A stretch of DNA of 46,695 nucleotides from a virus, in IMG/VR virus record IMGVR_UViG_3300025137_004795, positions 1 to 46,695 of that record; one strand, 5' to 3'. Position numbers and translations under genes: made by a program. Shown piece after piece: positions 19,017-43,424 of this stretch; positions within the stretch are counted from its first letter, which is position 1, and each line of letters opens with the position of its first letter. The notes under the pieces are model-generated. The model ran no database searches. It was not told where the DNA came from and saw only the letters and a list, made by a program, of their open reading frames with translations.

Positions 19017-19289
19017 ATGGCAAACGTAACAATCGGATCAGGAATTGGCGCAAGAACACAAATTATGTCAATTGCAAAAGGAACAGGCGACCACGACCAA
19101 GCAGAACTAAACACAGTATGTAACGCACTAGCGATGACACACACAGTAGTTGGAACAGATGGAACAATCGGTACAGACGCTGGAATGCACATTGCAGTAC
19201 AAGGTTCAGCAGACGTTGATGAATCAGCAGCTGCATACGCAACTGACATTACATTAACAGTGGTAGCAGATTTTAAAGCAGCTCTATAA
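19017..19289 (+). CDS. Small hypothetical protein, probably structural
   Basis: 90 residues, rich in Ala, Thr and Gly with few charges. A strong ribosome binding site (AAGGAG) precedes the ATG and a rho-independent terminator follows, so it ends the fibre transcript. No known domain. Its composition and late promoter fit an abundant virion or fibre-associated protein. Confidence 0.65.
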   Translation: MANVTIGSGIGARTQIMSIAKGTGDHDQAELNTVCNALAMTHTVVGTDGTIGTDAGMHIAVQGSADVDESAAAYATDITLTVVADFKAAL

Positions 19290-19391: not shown

Positions 19392-19712
19392 ATGGCAACA
19401 AGAAATCCAGCAAACGAAGTACAGTTTAATGTAGTAAACTTCGGTACAGAGATTCAAGTATGGAATGTAGCAGGAATGACTACAGATCCAAGTACAGAAG
19501 CTTCACCTGGTGAAGATATGGAAGCACTAGTAGAAGCAGTTCAAATGCTAGGCACAGTTTTAGGATGTGGTAAGATTGTATCAGGTGGCGGAACACATGC
19601 ATTTAATATCTATGTTGAACAATCAGCATGGACACAAGCAACAATAGAAGCCGCAGTTCAGGCAACAGGCGGAATATTCGCTAGTGCAACTGTTACAGCA
19701 GGCGATCTATAA
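19392..19712 (+). CDS. Small hypothetical protein, late gene
   Basis: 106 residues. The ATG at 19392 is chosen because it lies after the promoter and the GGAGTC site; an upstream in-frame start would run through the terminator. Largely uncharged, Ala/Gly/Thr-rich, similar in style to the 90-residue protein upstream but without clear sequence identity. Probably a virion protein; no function can be read. Confidence 0.65.
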   Translation: MATRNPANEVQFNVVNFGTEIQVWNVAGMTTDPSTEASPGEDMEALVEAVQMLGTVLGCGKIVSGGGTHAFNIYVEQSAWTQATIEAAVQATGGIFASATVTAGDL

Positions 19713-19739: not shown

Positions 19740-20135
19740 ATGGCAGGAATGGGAATACCAGATGACGATGATGTAGTCGTTGCAAAACCAAAGAAAGTAT
19801 CAAAACCAGTTACTAAACCAGATGCAACTGTAGTAAGTTCTACAGATAGTACAACAAGAAAAGTAAAGTTAGATCTAGAAGTAGATACAACTGTTAAGGA
19901 TTTAGGTCCTAATCCATATGTAAAGATAATCCATATGGCAAGAGCAGTAGATGCCTGGAGAATTTTTCCACGTGTCTTTATTACAACATATATTATACTA
20001 CTATACAAATGTGTTATATGGTATATGGCATTGCCAAATCCAAGTATGGAACAGTCAGGATTAATTAGTATTGTTGTAGGTGCTGGAGCGGCATGGTTTG
20101 GCTTATATACTGGATCAAGTAAAAGTAGGAAATAG
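19740..20135 (+). CDS. Small membrane protein, putative holin
   Basis: 131 residues. The first 60 are acidic and unstructured. Two membrane segments follow, near 78-98 (VFITTYIILLYKCVIWYMAL) and 105-125 (GLISIVVGAGAAWFGLYTG), then a short basic tail (SSKSRK). Two segments with a charged tail are typical of class II holins, which open the inner membrane at lysis. The strong site CGGGGGAA and a late-type promoter precede it. Spanin and muralytic genes lie elsewhere in the window. Another membrane role is possible. Confidence 0.55.
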   Translation: MAGMGIPDDDDVVVAKPKKVSKPVTKPDATVVSSTDSTTRKVKLDLEVDTTVKDLGPNPYVKIIHMARAVDAWRIFPRVFITTYIILLYKCVIWYMALPNPSMEQSGLISIVVGAGAAWFGLYTGSSKSRK

Positions 20136-20144
20136 AGAGAAATT

Positions 20145-20708
20145 ATGTATCAACATCATATTATGTTAAGAACAAATGAACATTTACCATCAGACACAGC
20201 TCTAAAGTGGTATCAGATAGTTAGAGAATTTGCTCCAAAAAATACAATTTACAGTTATGAATTAAACGGTAATTCTATTGCAATGGAATACGGACTCTAT
20301 ATGGAAGATGATCTTCCACATGCATACATTGTTCCGTTAACTCGTGATATGACTTCTGATGAGGCCTCCTTTATAGTTGAAGCATGGAGTTATTCTTATC
20401 AATCAGATTGTGATATAGAAATAAGTAATCAGTTTACTGATAATGGGTTTGGAGAATTTAACAATTCAATTCATATTGAAGAGGAAATAAAAACCCAAGT
20501 AACCAACGATATCCAAAAGTGGGAACACAATCGCTGGGTAGATAATAAAATACAAGAAGGCTGGCGTTGTGGCAGTTACTTTAACAGCAAACAAAAAACG
20601 CACCCAGCATTAAAGTCTTGGGATAACCTTCCAGAAAGTCATAGAAGAGCAAGAGATATTCCAAACAAGGAAGTAATGGAATTTCTTTCCAAAAATAAAA
20701 TTATATAA
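20145..20708 (+). CDS. RyR-domain protein
   Basis: 187 residues. The C-terminal 70 (about 115-185) match the RyR repeat pattern: HNRWVDNKIQEGWRCG, then HPALKSWDNLPESHRRARD. The conserved pieces are H..W, GWxxG, KTHP.L..W..LPES and the R-D near the end. RyR domains occur in ryanodine receptors and also in many bacterial and phage proteins, where they are thought to bind nucleotides or other small ligands. The N-terminal 110 residues resemble no domain I know. It leads a group with two radical SAM genes and may regulate or sense for them. Confidence 0.7.
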   Translation: MYQHHIMLRTNEHLPSDTALKWYQIVREFAPKNTIYSYELNGNSIAMEYGLYMEDDLPHAYIVPLTRDMTSDEASFIVEAWSYSYQSDCDIEISNQFTDNGFGEFNNSIHIEEEIKTQVTNDIQKWEHNRWVDNKIQEGWRCGSYFNSKQKTHPALKSWDNLPESHRRARDIPNKEVMEFLSKNKII

Positions 20709-20721
20709 GAACGGTAACATA

Positions 20722-21678
20722 GTGATTTATTGCCTCACAGAAGATAAGAAACTGTTTACCATAGATGTTAAAAACATGTACCCACCTTCTCCAAAGAGTT
20801 GCTTCGCATTCAATAACTTCGTATGTAATAAAGTAGATACAGCATTTCGTATACAGGCAAACGGAGTAATTGCTAGAGATAACGAGGCAATGTGTGGTAT
20901 TACAGATGTTATATGTACAAATGATTTATGTTCACACCCAGCAGATTATCGATTACCTAAGGCACAAACTCCAGAAATACTTGAAGAATTTAAAATCTTG
21001 GTTATGGCTAGTGTCGAAGATACACAACCATATAATATGCATAAAGGTAAAATTATTGCTATTGGTGATGATAGTTTATTAAAACCACAAGTTGAAACTC
21101 GTGTTAATTGGAATCCTGTTAAGAACTGTAATTGGGATTGTAGTTATTGTAATCCAGCATGGAGAACAGACAGAAATACTAATAAGAAATCACCATACGA
21201 ACTTAAACAAATGTTCTTAAAAGCCAAACTTCCTGAAAGTAATAACATAACTATTAAACTAGGCGGCGGTGAACCTACTATGTTATCGGAAATAGACAGA
21301 ATAGTTAAGTGGCTATTAGAACATAATGATAATATTAAAAAAGTTATAGTTGATACAAATGGTAGTGCAAAGTGGCATGTACTTGAAAGACTATGTAAGT
21401 TAGCATATCTACAAATAACATTACATAATGAGTACGTTACTACTGAACATCTAAATAAACTTCTAAAATTGAAAATGGCATATCCAAAAAAAGTTAACTT
21501 TAAATTAATGGAAAATGCAAACCAAACTATTTTAGATTTCTTTATTCTACAGAATGTCGGAAAACCTAAACCAGCAGAAATAGAAAAATGGTGGGAAATT
21601 CAACAGATCACTCTTTCAGATAAAGTATATCGTAGTGTTAGAAAAGACGTAGGTGCAGATGCTATTAGTAAAAACTGA
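20722..21678 (+). CDS. Radical SAM protein, tandem copy 1
   Basis: 318 residues with GTG start. The radical SAM Fe-S motif CNWDCSYC is at residues 136-143 (Cys136, 140, 143). The SAM-binding GGGEPT follows near 189-194 and VDTNGSA near 213-219. The first 120 residues contain extra cysteines (MCGITDVICTNDLCSHP) that could bind an auxiliary cluster, and the phrase KIIAIGDD is shared with the next gene. It overlaps that gene by 26 bases. The reaction is unknown; no precursor peptide is obvious, though small proteins upstream (19017, 19392) are possible substrates. SufB in this genome could supply its cluster. Confidence 0.88.
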   Translation: MIYCLTEDKKLFTIDVKNMYPPSPKSCFAFNNFVCNKVDTAFRIQANGVIARDNEAMCGITDVICTNDLCSHPADYRLPKAQTPEILEEFKILVMASVEDTQPYNMHKGKIIAIGDDSLLKPQVETRVNWNPVKNCNWDCSYCNPAWRTDRNTNKKSPYELKQMFLKAKLPESNNITIKLGGGEPTMLSEIDRIVKWLLEHNDNIKKVIVDTNGSAKWHVLERLCKLAYLQITLHNEYVTTEHLNKLLKLKMAYPKKVNFKLMENANQTILDFFILQNVGKPKPAEIEKWWEIQQITLSDKVYRSVRKDVGADAISKN

Positions 21679-22531
21679 TACTGGATTATATCGCACAGAC
21701 TTTAATGTATTAAAACGTATGAAGATCACAAACTTTATGGATTGGTTTTGTGACTTGGGAAAATACAATGTCATAGTAACTCCGCAAAAACAAATACACA
21801 CAAGTATATGTCGCAACATAGATACTATCTGTAACAAAATAAATTGTTGGTGTGGTGAGGATATAGAGATACCCAAAGCCATTAATGAACAAACTTTACG
21901 CATGTTTGAGTCACAGATTTTAGATAGTAATCTACTTGACTTTCCTGAATATGAGTCAGGTAAAATTATTGCTGTTGCTGAATCTCGTAAAATAACTGAA
22001 AGCACATTACTATTAGACTGGTCTCCAACAAAGCGTTGTAATTATGATTGTAGTTACTGTCCACCAAGAATACATGATAATCACAGTCCATTACCAGATC
22101 TAGATGAACTGAAGCAAATGGCGACAGATATTCTAACACCACACAAACATAGACGTGTACGAATAGTTATTAGTGGTGGGGAACCTACCCTATTGCCTGA
22201 TTTACTATTATTTGTACAGTATCTGGATAGTATGCTTGAACGTAAACGTATACTAATTATGACTAACGGTACAACAAGTATAAAAAGACTTATAGAATTA
22301 CACCAATACAGTATGTTTTCAATATCCCTACATCATGAATATGTATCCGACAAACTGTTAAACAAGTTTCTTAACTTCCTAAACCAAACACCATATAACA
22401 AAAACATATCGTTCAAAATGTTTCAAGGACATAACTTTGATAATTTTATAGCACAAGCAAGTAAATATGACTTTGTTCGCATATCAGATAATGTTCCAAT
22501 CGTTGATAAAGAAACTAGTGAATGGACTTGA
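21653..22531 (+). CDS. Radical SAM protein, tandem copy 2
   Basis: 292 residues, GTG start at 21653 or ATG at 21659. CNYDCSYC lies at 129-136, SGGEPTLLPD near 179-188 and MTNGTT near 203-208. Order and spacing match the upstream protein: KIIAVAESR, DWSPTKRCN, and the 'SLHHEYVSDKLLNKFL' stretch compared with 'TLHNEYVTTEHLNKLL'. The two are therefore diverged tandem paralogues. The N-terminal part has CNKINCWCG, a possible extra metal site. The pair may form a heterodimer. Target unknown. Confidence 0.88.
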   Translation: MQMLLVKTDTGLYRTDFNVLKRMKITNFMDWFCDLGKYNVIVTPQKQIHTSICRNIDTICNKINCWCGEDIEIPKAINEQTLRMFESQILDSNLLDFPEYESGKIIAVAESRKITESTLLLDWSPTKRCNYDCSYCPPRIHDNHSPLPDLDELKQMATDILTPHKHRRVRIVISGGEPTLLPDLLLFVQYLDSMLERKRILIMTNGTTSIKRLIELHQYSMFSISLHHEYVSDKLLNKFLNFLNQTPYNKNISFKMFQGHNFDNFIAQASKYDFVRISDNVPIVDKETSEWT

Positions 22532-22585: not shown

Positions 22586-23611
22586 ATGACTATAGGCAGA
22601 GTAGGTTTCGCATGTAAGTATATGCATCCTGATCAAACACAGAACAAGAAACTATTAGATGAAATACAACGTCCACTAAATACTCGCAGTACAACAGTAC
22701 AGTGGCTTAATAGACAGACACGTGATGTTGCAGAAGAACGGCTATGGGACTTGATGGTTCATAATGCTGATTCATACGGAAAGTTAATAGAGTATGTTGG
22801 AACTTTACCTCAACAACAAAGAATGGTTAGGCTGGGCAGTGATGTTTTGCCTGTATATACTCAGCATGAGTGGTCGTACTTCTGGAAAAAGCCAGACGTT
22901 ATCGCATATGCAGAGAAAACATTTGCAAAGGTTGGCGAATCAGCAAGAGCCCTCGATGTCAGACTATCGATGCACCCAGGCCAATTTACTGTACTTGCGA
23001 GCGACAACCCGGAAATAGTAGAACGTAGTATAGAGGAGTTTGAATATCATGTTGATGTCATCAGGTGGATGGGTTTCGGACGCACCTTCCAGGACTTTAA
23101 ATGCAATGTCCATATATCCGGTAGACAAGGTCCTGCCGGTATCAAAGCAATCCTCCCAAGATTATCTCCGGAGGCGAGAAATTCTATTACAATCGAGAAT
23201 GACGAGAACGCATGGGGGCTCGAAGACAGTCTCGAACTTGCCGATGATGTCGCACTCGTACTTGACATACACCATCACTGGTGCCGTGAAGGAGAATACA
23301 TATTACCCACCGACGATAGAGTTCTTCGCGTAATCGATAGCTGGCGTGGTGTAAGGCCTGCCCTACATTATTCATACAGTCGTACAGAACATTTACCTGA
23401 AGGGTTTACACACGATACAATGCAAGACTTCGGTACACTATTAGAAGCAGGACACAAGAAAGCCAAACTTAGAGCACACAGTGACTACTATCCTAACAAG
23501 GCAGTTAACACATGGGCTGGTAGTTTCCGTAATGACTTTGATATTATGTGCGAAAGCAAGTGTAAGAACTTAGCCAGTATAGCATTCGAAGAAGAAACAA
23601 GAAAAGTATAA
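22586..23611 (+). CDS. uvsE: UV damage endonuclease UvdE
   Basis: 341 residues, matching bacterial UvsE/UvdE along its length. The family segments are the start GRVGFACKYM, RLSMHPGQFTVL (near 126-137), CNVHISG (near 173-179), TIENDENAWGLED (near 198-210), LDIHHHWCREG (near 227-237) and RAHSDYYPN (near 291-299). UvdE is a TIM-barrel, metal-dependent nuclease that nicks DNA 5' of UV photoproducts and starts alternative excision repair, useful to a phage in sunlit water. The central part (about 22950-23350) has noticeably higher G+C and uses codons such as CTC, CCG and GGG that its neighbours avoid. This suggests recent acquisition or recombination. It has its own early-type promoter. Confidence 0.95.
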   Translation: MTIGRVGFACKYMHPDQTQNKKLLDEIQRPLNTRSTTVQWLNRQTRDVAEERLWDLMVHNADSYGKLIEYVGTLPQQQRMVRLGSDVLPVYTQHEWSYFWKKPDVIAYAEKTFAKVGESARALDVRLSMHPGQFTVLASDNPEIVERSIEEFEYHVDVIRWMGFGRTFQDFKCNVHISGRQGPAGIKAILPRLSPEARNSITIENDENAWGLEDSLELADDVALVLDIHHHWCREGEYILPTDDRVLRVIDSWRGVRPALHYSYSRTEHLPEGFTHDTMQDFGTLLEAGHKKAKLRAHSDYYPNKAVNTWAGSFRNDFDIMCESKCKNLASIAFEEETRKV

Positions 23612-23638: not shown

Positions 23639-23872
23639 ATGAATATGGACGAAGTATATAGACTCAAGTATCTAGCAGGTATCGTTAATAAAGACGGTAC
23701 TAGTGTGGAACCTGAGACTACTTCTATGGAAAACCTAAGTAACATTGGTAGTGAAAAAGGTGAATACATGAGAAAAAATAAGATACAACCTGGGACTAAC
23801 GAGTGGTTTAAGTTGTGGTTTTCACAGCCTAAATTAACTGGTGAAGATCCAATGCCGAGGAAAAACAAATGA
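23639..23872 (+). CDS. Small protein with RLKxLAG motif, first gene of the cargo-like cluster
   Basis: 77 residues. The N-terminus MNMDEVYRLKYLAGI resembles the AELSRLKKLAGLSE phrase inside the protein encoded at 24597. The C-terminal part (IQPGTNEWFKLWFSQPKLTGEDPMPR) looks like a conserved small phage motif, but I know no function for it. The gene is headed by an exact late promoter and overlaps the next gene by 4 bases. Probably a virion-associated or co-packaged protein, by context. Confidence 0.7.
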   Translation: MNMDEVYRLKYLAGIVNKDGTSVEPETTSMENLSNIGSEKGEYMRKNKIQPGTNEWFKLWFSQPKLTGEDPMPRKNK

Positions 23873-24348
23873 GAGCAAAAGACTTAATGGAAAAAGGACT
23901 AGTAACACCTGATCCAAAATTACCTAACTTTAAAGAGCTAGGTAAACCAAGTAAATATATGAAACGAAAGAAGGCTTTAGATGTAAAAACAAAGCCTATG
24001 ACAGAAGAAACATTCAACGATGATGATGAATTCTTTGAAGCATATGGTTACTTGGCTTATAGTATTGATGAAAACGATCTTTTTGAAGCGGAATATCAAG
24101 GACGTACTGTTAAACTAAACAAACCCATGCAGGGTGATGTTAAAAAGTTTAAAGTATATGTCAAGGACCCAAAGACTGGAAATGTTAAAAAAGTAAACTT
24201 TGGACATGGCGGATCAAGTGTTAAAGGTAAAGCAATGAAAATTAGAAAGAATAATCCTAAAGCTCGTAAAAGTTTTAGAGCTAGACATAATTGTGATAAT
24301 CCAGGACCTAAGACTAAAGCACGTTATTGGTCATGTAGGAAGTGGTAA
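23869..24348 (+). CDS. Basic phage protein, possible virion cargo
   Basis: 159 residues, strongly basic in the second half. It begins MRAKDLMEKG, giving an early L-M-E that fits a prohead-protease site. The C-terminal 90 residues (from QGRTVKLNKPMQGDVKKF) form a compact domain with VKKVNFGHGG, KARKSFRARHNC and a final ARYWSCRKW. Two conserved Cys and one His could bind zinc. I recall this domain as frequent in marine phages with no known function; the basic charge would suit DNA binding inside the capsid. It ends one base before the next ATG. Confidence 0.75.
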   Translation: MRAKDLMEKGLVTPDPKLPNFKELGKPSKYMKRKKALDVKTKPMTEETFNDDDEFFEAYGYLAYSIDENDLFEAEYQGRTVKLNKPMQGDVKKFKVYVKDPKTGNVKKVNFGHGGSSVKGKAMKIRKNNPKARKSFRARHNCDNPGPKTKARYWSCRKW

Positions 24349-28546: not shown

Positions 28547-29731
28547 ATGTACATAAAAAGAGATCCCAAAAGATACTGCGTATTCACATCTAATTATCCA
28601 TTTATTGATAATGACGGCTATACTGCATTATGTTGTAAGAACAGTCACCATAAACTTCCATATCATATTAAAGAACATAAGCTCAGTGACATCTGGAGGT
28701 CACCGGAGATGCTTGCCGTACGTCAGCAGTTTGCAACAGGAAAAGATGTTAAAGGTTGCTTTAAATGTTATGAACCTGAAGCACAAGGTATTAGAAGTTT
28801 CCGCACTAAAATGCTAGGACAACTTAATTTTAAAGACGGTAAAGTACCGTTCTTAGATGATGAGATCAGAGCTATAGATCTTCGTATAGGTAACATATGC
28901 AATCTTTCATGTACAATGTGTTACAGTGGTAATAGTAATAGAATTTATCAACAGATACCTAAAATGGCAAAACATTTTGGCTGGAGTCAGGGTAAAGTAG
29001 ATGCAGAGATGGAAAAGTATTCTGCTAAAAACTATGACTGGAGTAATGACGAACGTGCTTGGGATAATATTATTTCGGCACTTGATGAGAATCTATTGCA
29101 TTGTTATCTAGCAGGTGGTGAACCGTTTTACCTTAGAAACTTTGCTAATACAGTAAGACGTATTGGTAGTCTTGCACCTAATGCCCGTTTTGTTATTAAC
29201 ACAAATGGTACTAGACTGTTAAGAGAAAAAGATCTAAAACAATACGAAGGACTAAAGATTGGTATACGTTTAAGTGTAGATGGCTGGGAAAAGTCAGATG
29301 AATGGACTAGACAAGAAACTGTTTGGGAAGATAAACTTGCCGTTATGGATCAGTACTATAAAGAATTCAACTTAAGAGTATTTGATATTACTGCCAATGC
29401 GTTTAGTGTTAGAAGTATTCCCAAGCTAATAGAGTATTTAGATGAAAGATATCCTTTAAGTCAGATACAAGTACGTCCTGTTATTAACAAGCAGGAAATA
29501 CTAATGGAAAACATTCCAATGCATTTTAGAGAAGAAAGTCTATCATTTTTTGAGAAGCATTCGTCAAGAATAATGGGATTAGATCATGTAATTATGGAAA
29601 TGAAAAAGCCTTATAATGAAAGCAACCATAGAAAGGAAGTAGTGACAAAGTTTGTAGACTACTTTGATAGAAATGGAACAGTAAAATTAGAGGACTTTGA
29701 TCCAGAACTTGCAGAGTATGTTTATAACTAA
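28547..29731 (+). CDS. Radical SAM protein with N-terminal Cys-rich (twitch-like) region
   Basis: 394 residues. CNLSCTMC lies at 118-125 (Cys118, 122, 125), the SAM-binding AGGEPF near 193-198 and INTNGTRL near 221-228. The first 80 residues hold CC (in YTALCCKN) and GCFKCYEPEAQG, which resemble the SPASM/twitch auxiliary cluster ligands, here placed before the catalytic domain. SPASM/twitch enzymes usually modify peptides or proteins. A protein of the same layout is encoded at 42207. It is the only gene in this part of the cluster without a cargo-like start, so it may act in the infected cell, perhaps on neighbouring products. Confidence 0.88.
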   Translation: MYIKRDPKRYCVFTSNYPFIDNDGYTALCCKNSHHKLPYHIKEHKLSDIWRSPEMLAVRQQFATGKDVKGCFKCYEPEAQGIRSFRTKMLGQLNFKDGKVPFLDDEIRAIDLRIGNICNLSCTMCYSGNSNRIYQQIPKMAKHFGWSQGKVDAEMEKYSAKNYDWSNDERAWDNIISALDENLLHCYLAGGEPFYLRNFANTVRRIGSLAPNARFVINTNGTRLLREKDLKQYEGLKIGIRLSVDGWEKSDEWTRQETVWEDKLAVMDQYYKEFNLRVFDITANAFSVRSIPKLIEYLDERYPLSQIQVRPVINKQEILMENIPMHFREESLSFFEKHSSRIMGLDHVIMEMKKPYNESNHRKEVVTKFVDYFDRNGTVKLEDFDPELAEYVYN

Positions 29732-41933: not shown

Positions 41934-42207
41934 GATAGTAGAGTTTTGGAAGAGCAGTTATACTAGCGACCCTAAAGCCTTTATGTTAGAAATGGTTAGT
42001 TTCTTCGTAACAGTTATTGCAAGTATGATGCTGGCCATCAATGCACAAAATCCTGACATGACCATTGTTTATCCATTCTTTTTTATTGGAAGTGTGACTG
42101 CCATTTGGGCATACCACAGACGTAAATTAATATGGCCTTATATGCTTACTATATATTTTGCAATAGTAAATGTGTTTGGGTTTGGTATAGCAATGGGCTG
42201 GTATTAA
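41926..42207 (+). CDS. Small integral membrane protein
   Basis: 93 residues with three membrane segments: near 22-40 (MVSFFVTVIASMMLAI), 48-64 (IVYPFFFIGSVTAIWAY) and 71-90 (IWPYMLTIYFAIVNVFGFGIA). The ATG at 41926 is preferred over a TTG at 41905 because AGGAAC precedes it. It overlaps the previous gene by 8 bases and the radical SAM gene start by one (TAATG). Function unknown. Confidence 0.7.
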   Translation: MNKIVEFWKSSYTSDPKAFMLEMVSFFVTVIASMMLAINAQNPDMTIVYPFFFIGSVTAIWAYHRRKLIWPYMLTIYFAIVNVFGFGIAMGWY

Positions 42208-43424
42208 TGTCAGATGTCTTCTGCCCAACACCATGGTTAGAAATGTTTGTACGTCCTAATGGTGATGTAATTCCTTGTTGTGAAATGATATCTTCAGACA
42301 ATACTTGTGGTAATGTAAACACAGATAAGTTTGAAGACATTATGAATCATTCAATGTATAAAAAGATACGTGAAGAATTATTAAAAGGTAAGAGAACTAG
42401 AGAGTGTCATAATTGCTGGAATCGTGAAGATCAGACTGGTGGTACAAGTCTAAGAACAAAACGTGTAAGTGATGATTATATACAAGACATCGGTGGTAAA
42501 GGTTTAGATGATGAAGTTTTTACTAAACTAATTGTTACAGATATTAAAAGTATGAAGATAGACTTTAGTAATGGTTGTAACCTAAAGTGTCCGATGTGTA
42601 ATTACAACAGATCAACCGCTTGGAGAAAAGATAAATTAGCATTTGAAAAAGACTTTGACTTTGAAAATTATGAATACCATGGACTAAAAGTTAAAGTGAA
42701 AGAATGGGACGAAATATTTAAAACTATACCCCTTAGTTTTATAGATGATAATCTAGAATATATACTTCAAATGCATGAGATCAATATTAGTGGCGGTGAG
42801 CCATTCTTTCATCCACAGTTCCATCATTTACTGGATAAGTTAGTTGAGAATAATTATGCAGGTAATCTAACACTTATTACTAACCTAACTCTACTTGAAG
42901 ATGATACATTAGAAAAACTTGAAAAGCTGGAAAGTAGATTGAGTATTAGTATTGATGGCTGTCTTGATTTGTATGAATATGTTAGAAGTGCTACTACACA
43001 TGGCAAGTATGACTGGAATCATATCTGGGGTAAGATACAACAAGTAATGGAAGCAGATATACACATAAGTTTTTCATATACACCACAGTTATACAACATG
43101 TATAATATTATACCTTGGCTGGAAATTACTAGTGAGTTTAGGCAACGACAACAACGTAAGCAACTTTTAAATGAAGTATTGATATCACCAAACTATTTAC
43201 GGATCGCCAATCATCCTGATAAAGCAGAAAAGGATAGACTAATACAAAGTTTAAGTTTCTGGGATCACGTTCGTGGTGTTAAAAGTATACAACAAGCACT
43301 AGCACAACCGCAACCCAAGGATCGCTGGATACAGTTCTGTAAGTTCACTAATTTTCTTGACAAACAGCGAAAAACAAGTATAATAAAGTATGTTCCACAG
43401 TTTGAGAAGTATTGGATTAACTAA
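42207..43424 (+). CDS. Radical SAM protein with N-terminal Cys-rich (twitch-like) region
   Basis: 405 residues from the ATG at 42207; an in-frame ATG 25 codons upstream lies inside the membrane protein gene. CNLKCPMC at 124-131 (Cys124, 128, 131) binds the SAM-cleaving [4Fe-4S] cluster, with SGGEPFFHP near 196-204 and LSISIDG near 244-250. The N-terminus has CPTPW, DVIPCCEM and RECHNCWNRED, like SPASM/twitch cluster ligands. Layout matches the protein encoded at 28547, though sequence is clearly different. SPASM/twitch enzymes mostly modify peptides. The small proteins at 41926 and 43425 surround it, so a membrane-linked substrate is conceivable. Confidence 0.88.
   Translation: MSDVFCPTPWLEMFVRPNGDVIPCCEMISSDNTCGNVNTDKFEDIMNHSMYKKIREELLKGKRTRECHNCWNREDQTGGTSLRTKRVSDDYIQDIGGKGLDDEVFTKLIVTDIKSMKIDFSNGCNLKCPMCNYNRSTAWRKDKLAFEKDFDFENYEYHGLKVKVKEWDEIFKTIPLSFIDDNLEYILQMHEINISGGEPFFHPQFHHLLDKLVENNYAGNLTLITNLTLLEDDTLEKLEKLESRLSISIDGCLDLYEYVRSATTHGKYDWNHIWGKIQQVMEADIHISFSYTPQLYNMYNIIPWLEITSEFRQRQQRKQLLNEVLISPNYLRIANHPDKAEKDRLIQSLSFWDHVRGVKSIQQALAQPQPKDRWIQFCKFTNFLDKQRKTSIIKYVPQFEKYWIN

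What the first reader, a model, noticed from the sequence alone, without database searches (positions are those of the whole stretch)
20145..22531. RyR-domain gene followed by two tandem diverged radical SAM genes
The two radical SAM proteins share layout and phrases (KIIAIG/KIIAVA, NWNP/DWSP before the Cys motif, HNEYV/HHEYV), so they come from a duplication. Extra Cys in both N-terminal parts hint at auxiliary clusters. The RyR-domain protein in front could sense a nucleotide ligand. This could be a small unrecognised modification system.
Basis: partly seen in the sequence, partly recalled or inferred. Interest (0 to 1): 0.72.

Follow-up and report, generated by a model that had tools for sequence, protein, structure and literature searches.

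The report
Phage radical SAM pair beside RyR
A marine jumbo-type phage carries a duplicated pair of radical enzymes with an undescribed cysteine domain, next to an unrelated gene that probably blocks a bacterial immune signal; they are neighbours rather than one system, though the enzyme architecture itself is new.

Summary
A RyR-domain gene (20145-20708) is followed by two diverged radical SAM genes, rS1 (20722-21678) and rS2 (21653/21659-22531), sisters by duplication (96/97 support). The interpretation as one three-gene system fails. The closest relative (L001, RyR 45% identical) has the same gene order, but RyR is followed directly by UvsE with no pair between. No other RyR locus fetched carries this radical SAM family, and no fetched radical SAM locus carries RyR. 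The RyR gene is best read as a RyDEP-like cADPR binder or hydrolase (anti-Thoeris): three of four ligand residues match at exact spacing; the catalytic Asp is shifted by one. The pair is a cassette of a kind common in variable regions of large phages. What is new is the architecture: a Cys domain of about 60 residues (4 invariant Cys, no Pfam or PHROG family) precedes the core. It resembles the C-terminal part of STM4011-family proteins, so domain order is swapped. In six phage contigs and one Bdellovibrionia lineage it is a free small protein encoded just downstream of a core-only enzyme. Its chemistry is unknown; gene neighbours of relatives point weakly to sugar or surface-glycan tailoring.

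The parts
20145..20708 (+). RyR-domain protein, 187 aa; RyR domain at residues 109-183, N-terminal ~105 residues a separate phage module
   Evidence: Pfam RyR E 1.9e-10; H128, W131, H153 at exact RyDEP spacing; orthologue in the same place in L001, and in the same stretch in Atu_ph07 and Phosso
20722..21678 (+). rS1, radical SAM protein with N-terminal Cys domain, 318 aa, GTG start; the fast-evolving copy
   Evidence: Pfam Radical_SAM E 2.3e-12; CNWDCSYC and GGGEPT present; branch 3.24 against 0.90 for rS2
21659..22531 (+). rS2, radical SAM protein with N-terminal Cys domain, 290-292 aa (ATG 21659 or GTG 21653)
   Evidence: Pfam Radical_SAM E 1.1e-15; hundreds of viral relatives
20818..20946 (+). 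Cys domain of rS1 (about residues 33-75; Cys 35, 58, 65, 70)
   Evidence: alignments A4 and A6; no Pfam family
21743..21877 (+). Cys domain of rS2 (about residues 31-75; Cys 33, 53, 60, 65, 67)
   Evidence: profile of the fused domain matches the free version at 98.9% probability; relatives match positions 195-254 of STM4011 NF038073
22586..23611 (+). UvsE-like UV endonuclease, a separate mobile gene; directly follows RyR in L001
   Evidence: Pfam UvdE E 2.7e-37; 80 closest loci share no RyR or Cys-domain gene
19740..20135 (+). phrog_10198-like protein just upstream of RyR, also upstream of RyR in L001

Best explanation
Two independent functions lie side by side in a variable stretch behind the tail-fibre genes. 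(1) The RyR gene is an older gene of this phage lineage. It makes a RyDEP-like protein that binds, and perhaps cleaves, 2' or 3' cyclic ADP-ribose and so blunts Thoeris immunity; binding (sponge) is likelier than cleavage. (2) rS1 and rS2 are an inserted cassette of duplicated radical SAM enzymes. Each has a Cys domain placed before the core that probably holds an auxiliary 4Fe-4S cluster and shapes the substrate site. It is a swapped-order counterpart of the C-terminal domain of STM4011-type enzymes. The two products may act in sequence or as a pair, rS1 being the diverged copy. The likeliest substrate is a sugar, nucleotide-sugar or surface-glycan precursor. Shown: genes, homology, duplication, conserved Cys, free and fused forms, lack of trio conservation. 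Inferred: cluster binding, pairing, substrate, cADPR binding.
For: Synteny without the pair in L001: ClpA, P13183, fibre, P19740, RyR, UvsE, then two other radical SAM genes. RyR in Phosso and Atu_ph07 lies between P13183 and the DNA polymerase, beside the ligase genes, with no radical SAM annotated near it. RyR found only in loci fetched for RyR. RyDEP function and residues H75, W78, H100, D117 from PMC13232231, mapped through phage homologues with exact 0/+3/+25/+42 spacing. Invariant Cys and core residues. Free domain against fused domain 98.9%, downstream of a core-only enzyme in six distinct phage contigs and in L178/L179. STM4011 positions 195-254, model matched by 10 of 13 members. Neighbours of relatives: DegT aminotransferase, epimerases, UDPG dehydrogenase, sulfotransferases, carbamoyltransferase, family 2 glycosyltransferase in L175. 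Gene cassettes of radical SAM in pelagimyophage host-recognition islands (PMC7029224).
Against: The window itself shows no glycosyltransferase or nucleotide-sugar gene near the pair. Each Pfam family among neighbours is seen in only 1-4 of 76 proteins, so the glycan reading is weak. In RyR the D117 column holds R170, with D171 next to it, and the Q54 region is not alignable, so catalysis is doubtful. Profile comparison with the N-terminal SPASM domain of the other window radical SAM proteins failed (1%), and no solved structure matches the domain, so the cluster is unproven. STM4011 matches of single domains are weak (E 1e-4 to 3e-2, best 2.1e-5) and no whole protein reaches the family cut-off. 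rS1's long branch leaves the sister placing open to artefact. No structure model could be made.
Confidence: 0.55

Rival explanations
1. The radical SAM pair modifies a phage or host protein or peptide (RiPP-like or virion-protein maturation), with the Cys domain as a SPASM/twitch-type peptide-binding domain.
For: Cores resemble many peptide maturases at low score; paired maturases such as HxsB/HxsC exist; tail-fibre genes lie just upstream.
Against: No short Cys-rich or leader-like ORF was seen recurring beside the family; the two small proteins upstream are window-only in the loci fetched; neighbours of relatives lean to sugar enzymes.
Confidence: 0.25
2. The cassette is a neutral or decaying passenger in a variable region, kept for a short time without a function for this phage.
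For: rS1 evolves very fast, has lost the fifth Cys (C67 column) and rS2 lacks the C-terminal tail of relatives; UvsE nearby is mobile too.
Against: Both frames are intact, both keep the CxxxCxxC motif, GGEP and the four domain Cys.
Confidence: 0.15
3. Viperin-like enzymes that make chain-terminating nucleotides or counter another phage.
For: Viperin models are the top curated NCBIfam match (E 1e-10 and 1.8e-12) and PADLOC pVip matches (E 9e-12, 2.5e-13).
Against: Scores are 41-47 bits against a cut-off of 180 and cover only the core; viperins have no such N-terminal Cys domain (own knowledge); other window radical SAM proteins also match pVip.
Confidence: 0.05
4. RyR, rS1 and rS2 form one nucleotide-sensing modification system, as first proposed.
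For: Close spacing and same strand in the window (13-base gap, 20-26-base overlap).
Against: No relative keeps the trio.
Confidence: 0.04

Closest known systems
STM4011 family radical SAM protein (NCBIfam NF038073)
   Same: Same two domains: radical SAM core (profile 11-146) and a Cys region (195-254); NCBIfam names a separate STM4012 radical SAM family from the same locus (own knowledge).
   Different: Domain order is swapped in the window proteins and the Cys domain can be a free protein; no whole protein reaches the 200-bit cut-off. Function of STM4011 itself appears unknown (one search found no paper).
N_Twi_rSAM, twitch-domain radical SAM (NF033640)
   Same: Also a Cys domain before the core; two other window genes (28547, 42207) are members (192 and 248 bits against 170); relatives of these sit beside the rS2-like genes in arrays.
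   Different: rS1 and rS2 score 24 and 20 bits; the N-terminal domains do not align by profile (1%).
Radical SAM clusters of Campylobacter phages CP220, CPt10, CP21 and pelagimyophage cassettes
   Same: Several radical SAM genes in a row in interchangeable regions (PMC2853527, PMC7029224).
   Different: The CP21 match covers the core region only (query 114-265); the Cys domain was not found in sequenced phages with two representatives.
RyDEP, phage RyR-domain defence-evasion protein (PMC13232231)
   Same: PF02026 domain; H75, W78 and H100 equivalents at exact spacing.
   Different: Catalytic D117 position shifted by one, Q54 region replaced by another N-terminal module, catalysis untested.

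Membership tests
RyR domain (PF02026) | Score above Pfam gathering cut-off | tested here: met
   41.3 bits against 27.4
RyDEP (anti-Thoeris RyR protein) | Ligand residues H75, W78, H100 | tested here: met
   H128, W131, H153 at the same spacing
RyDEP (anti-Thoeris RyR protein) | Catalytic D117 | tested here: inconclusive
   R170 in that column, D171 next; D present in Atu_ph07 and Phosso
RyDEP (anti-Thoeris RyR protein) | Binding or cleavage of 2'/3' cADPR | not testable with these tools
   needs protein
Radical SAM superfamily (PF04055) | CxxxCxxC with core match above cut-off | tested here: met
   47.8 and 58.6 bits against 29.5, motif present in both
STM4011 family (NF038073) | Whole-protein score over 200 bits | tested here: not met
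   rS1 and rS2 scored 24 and 21 bits; best relative 48.9
STM4011 family (NF038073) | Core followed by C-terminal Cys domain | tested here: not met
   Cys domain precedes core
N_Twi_rSAM (NF033640) | Score over 170 bits and N-terminal twitch/SPASM domain | tested here: not met
   24.2 and 20.5 bits; profile probability 1%
Prokaryotic viperin (NF038283) | Score over 180 bits | tested here: not met
   41.3 and 47 bits
Auxiliary-cluster (SPASM/twitch type) enzymes | Cys set that binds a second 4Fe-4S cluster | not testable with these tools
   four invariant Cys in 22 sequences are compatible; cluster not shown

The most novel reading that the evidence does not exclude
A new Fe-S domain works as an exchangeable partner of radical SAM cores: after the core in STM4011 enzymes, before it in phage enzymes, or as a free subunit. 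rS1 and rS2 form a heterodimer in which the fast-evolving copy sets substrate choice for a phage-made glycan or metabolite.
Probability: 0.2. Interest if true: 0.65.

Novelty: new variant of a known kind. Interest (0 to 1): 0.42.

Why it matters
Radical SAM cassettes are a frequent but unexplained class of genes in large uncultured phages. A conserved Cys domain that occurs before, after or apart from the core gives a handle on that family: the free and fused forms predict which proteins work together and can be tested in E. coli. The RyR neighbour shows how a chance neighbour can look like a system, and adds a jumbo-phage branch to the newly found cADPR-targeting RyR proteins.

Tried and rejected
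Trio as a unit: rejected by synteny and by the lack of RyR in radical SAM loci. RyR with UvsE as a unit: 80 closest UvsE loci carry no RyR. Small proteins at 19017 and 19392 as substrates: no relatives in fetched loci, and none for 19392 in phage records. Viperin membership: below cut-off. rS1 as a fused form of the short core-only clade: constrained tree rejected at p 0.012. N-domain as the SPASM of N_Twi_rSAM: 1%. More RyR relatives by an alignment scan or from L001 and Phosso: none new. STM4011 and its locus in papers: nothing on function (the two papers were not read). Structure prediction: job interrupted, then switched off, so fold searches were not possible. The scan with rS1 alone found no viral relatives.

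Full report
Observation. The window is a virus record of 46,695 bases. Its DNA polymerase is closest to Sinorhizobium phage Phosso (47.7%), Agrobacterium phage Atu_ph07 and RaK2-type jumbo phages, so it is probably a fragment of a jumbo-type phage. The three genes are real and placed as stated: RyR domain E 1.9e-10, radical SAM E 2.3e-12 and 1.1e-15. rS1 and rS2 match each other at E 4e-28.

Duplication. In a tree of 62 sequences the two are sisters (93/81); in a cleaner 25-row tree the support is 96/97. rS1 has a branch of 3.24 against 0.90 for rS2, so divergence was lopsided. Joining rS1 with the short core-only clade is rejected (p-AU 0.012), while joining rS2 with the long clade is not (p 0.163), so the exact order of events stays open.

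Is the trio kept together? No. L001, the closest RyR relative (45%), has the same order of ClpA, P12379, P13183, tail fibre, P19740 and RyR, then UvsE directly; two other radical SAM genes follow UvsE there. In Phosso and Atu_ph07 RyR lies between P13183 and the DNA polymerase, beside the DNA ligase genes, with no radical SAM annotated in the stretch. In Salicola phage SCTP-2 none is annotated near it either. Across all loci fetched up, the RyR profile is found only in loci fetched for RyR. The 80 closest UvsE loci hold no RyR and no Cys-domain gene. The stretch therefore looks like a variable region in which RyR is the older resident and rS1-rS2 and UvsE are cassettes. These comparisons are few (four relatives), but they agree.

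RyR. A 2026 preprint (PMC13232231) shows that phage RyR-domain proteins cleave or sequester 2' and 3' cADPR and defeat Thoeris; residues H75, W78, H100 and D117 matter. DyoEdafos gp78 itself was not retrieved, but Xenomorph gp87 shows exactly that spacing, and in the window H128, W131 and H153 match, with R170 in the D117 column and D171 next to it. In two Arthrobacter phages the homologue lies next to or near a PnuC-like nicotinamide riboside transporter, which fits NAD-linked biology. Most tested homologues in that paper bind but do not cleave, so a sponge is the safer guess here. The N-terminal part of the window protein resembles the N-terminus of a different phage protein next to P13183.

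The Cys domain. Alignment of 22 homologues shows C33, C53, C60 and C65 invariant and C67 nearly so, before the core motif. The domain alone has no Pfam match; a free representative has none in PHROGs. Two representatives have no tblastn match in 50,697 phage records, whereas uncultured viral contigs hold hundreds of relatives of rS2. Ten of 13 members match the STM4011 radical SAM model, and for those placed on it the match is at positions about 195-254 of 278, its C-terminal part. Core and Cys domain are thus in swapped order. Single-domain scores are modest, best 2.1e-5; a Bacteriovoracaceae member matches with two stretches (48.9 bits in all).

Free form. In L004, L006, L008, L009, L010 and L011 a core-only radical SAM gene (225-231 aa) is followed by a small gene encoding the Cys domain alone, directly or (L008) after one QueC-like gene. 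The same split is seen in Bdellovibrionia L178/L179. Fused and free domains match at 98.9% probability. Such fusion and splitting usually means that the parts work together; this is an inference. The domain is not detectably the SPASM of the N_Twi family, although it shares the look of a C-G-G-C frame.

Context of relatives. Of 113 distinct Cys-domain radical SAM ORFs, 69 have another radical SAM ORF within 300 bases. Non-radical-SAM neighbours include sugar-nucleotide and tailoring enzymes, but each family is in few proteins; a family 2 glycosyltransferase accompanies one bacterial copy. Literature already reports many radical SAM genes in Campylobacter phages (PMC2853527), pelagimyophage islands (PMC7029224) and a T4-like environmental genome with 12 (PMC5332604). 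So the arrays are known; the swapped and free Cys domain is not described in the libraries searched.

Verdict. The finding is two neighbours, not a system. The RyR gene is probably anti-Thoeris. The pair is a new architecture variant of phage radical SAM cassettes with unknown chemistry, glycan tailoring being my best guess at about one in three. Structure models could not be obtained.

Noticed in passing
window 28547-29731 and 42207-43424: Two more radical SAM genes, both over the cut-off of N_Twi_rSAM (NF033640), so the fragment carries at least four radical SAM genes.
   Followed up: partly
window 149-2817: TctA transporter gene (E 3.9e-75) with an upstream signal-peptide-like protein without Pfam match, possibly its binding protein: a tricarboxylate transporter as auxiliary metabolic gene.
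   Followed up: partly
window 2949-3779: A 276-residue class II tRNA synthetase-like protein (E 1.5e-15), shorter than a normal synthetase.
   Followed up: no
window 20145-20460 and L093, L102, L107, L131, L142: The N-terminal module of the RyR protein resembles the N-terminus of another phage protein, whose C-terminal half resembles window ORF 23869-24348.
   Followed up: partly
L008 8942-10620: A QueC-like gene sits between the core-only radical SAM gene and the free Cys-domain gene.
   Followed up: no
L178 and L179 (Bdellovibrionia), whole locus: Arrays of at least seven radical SAM genes in bacterial genomes, including the core-only plus free Cys-domain split.
   Followed up: no
window 22586-23611: UvsE has relatives at 75-83% identity in many contigs that share almost no other window gene, so it moves alone.
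   Followed up: yes
window 19017-19289 and 19392-19712: Two small proteins with no relatives in fetched loci; the second also has none in phage records. Probably lineage-specific virion proteins.
   Followed up: partly
L248 1300-1978 and L251 1495-2332: RyR-domain genes next to or near PnuC-like nicotinamide riboside transporters in Arthrobacter phages.
   Followed up: no
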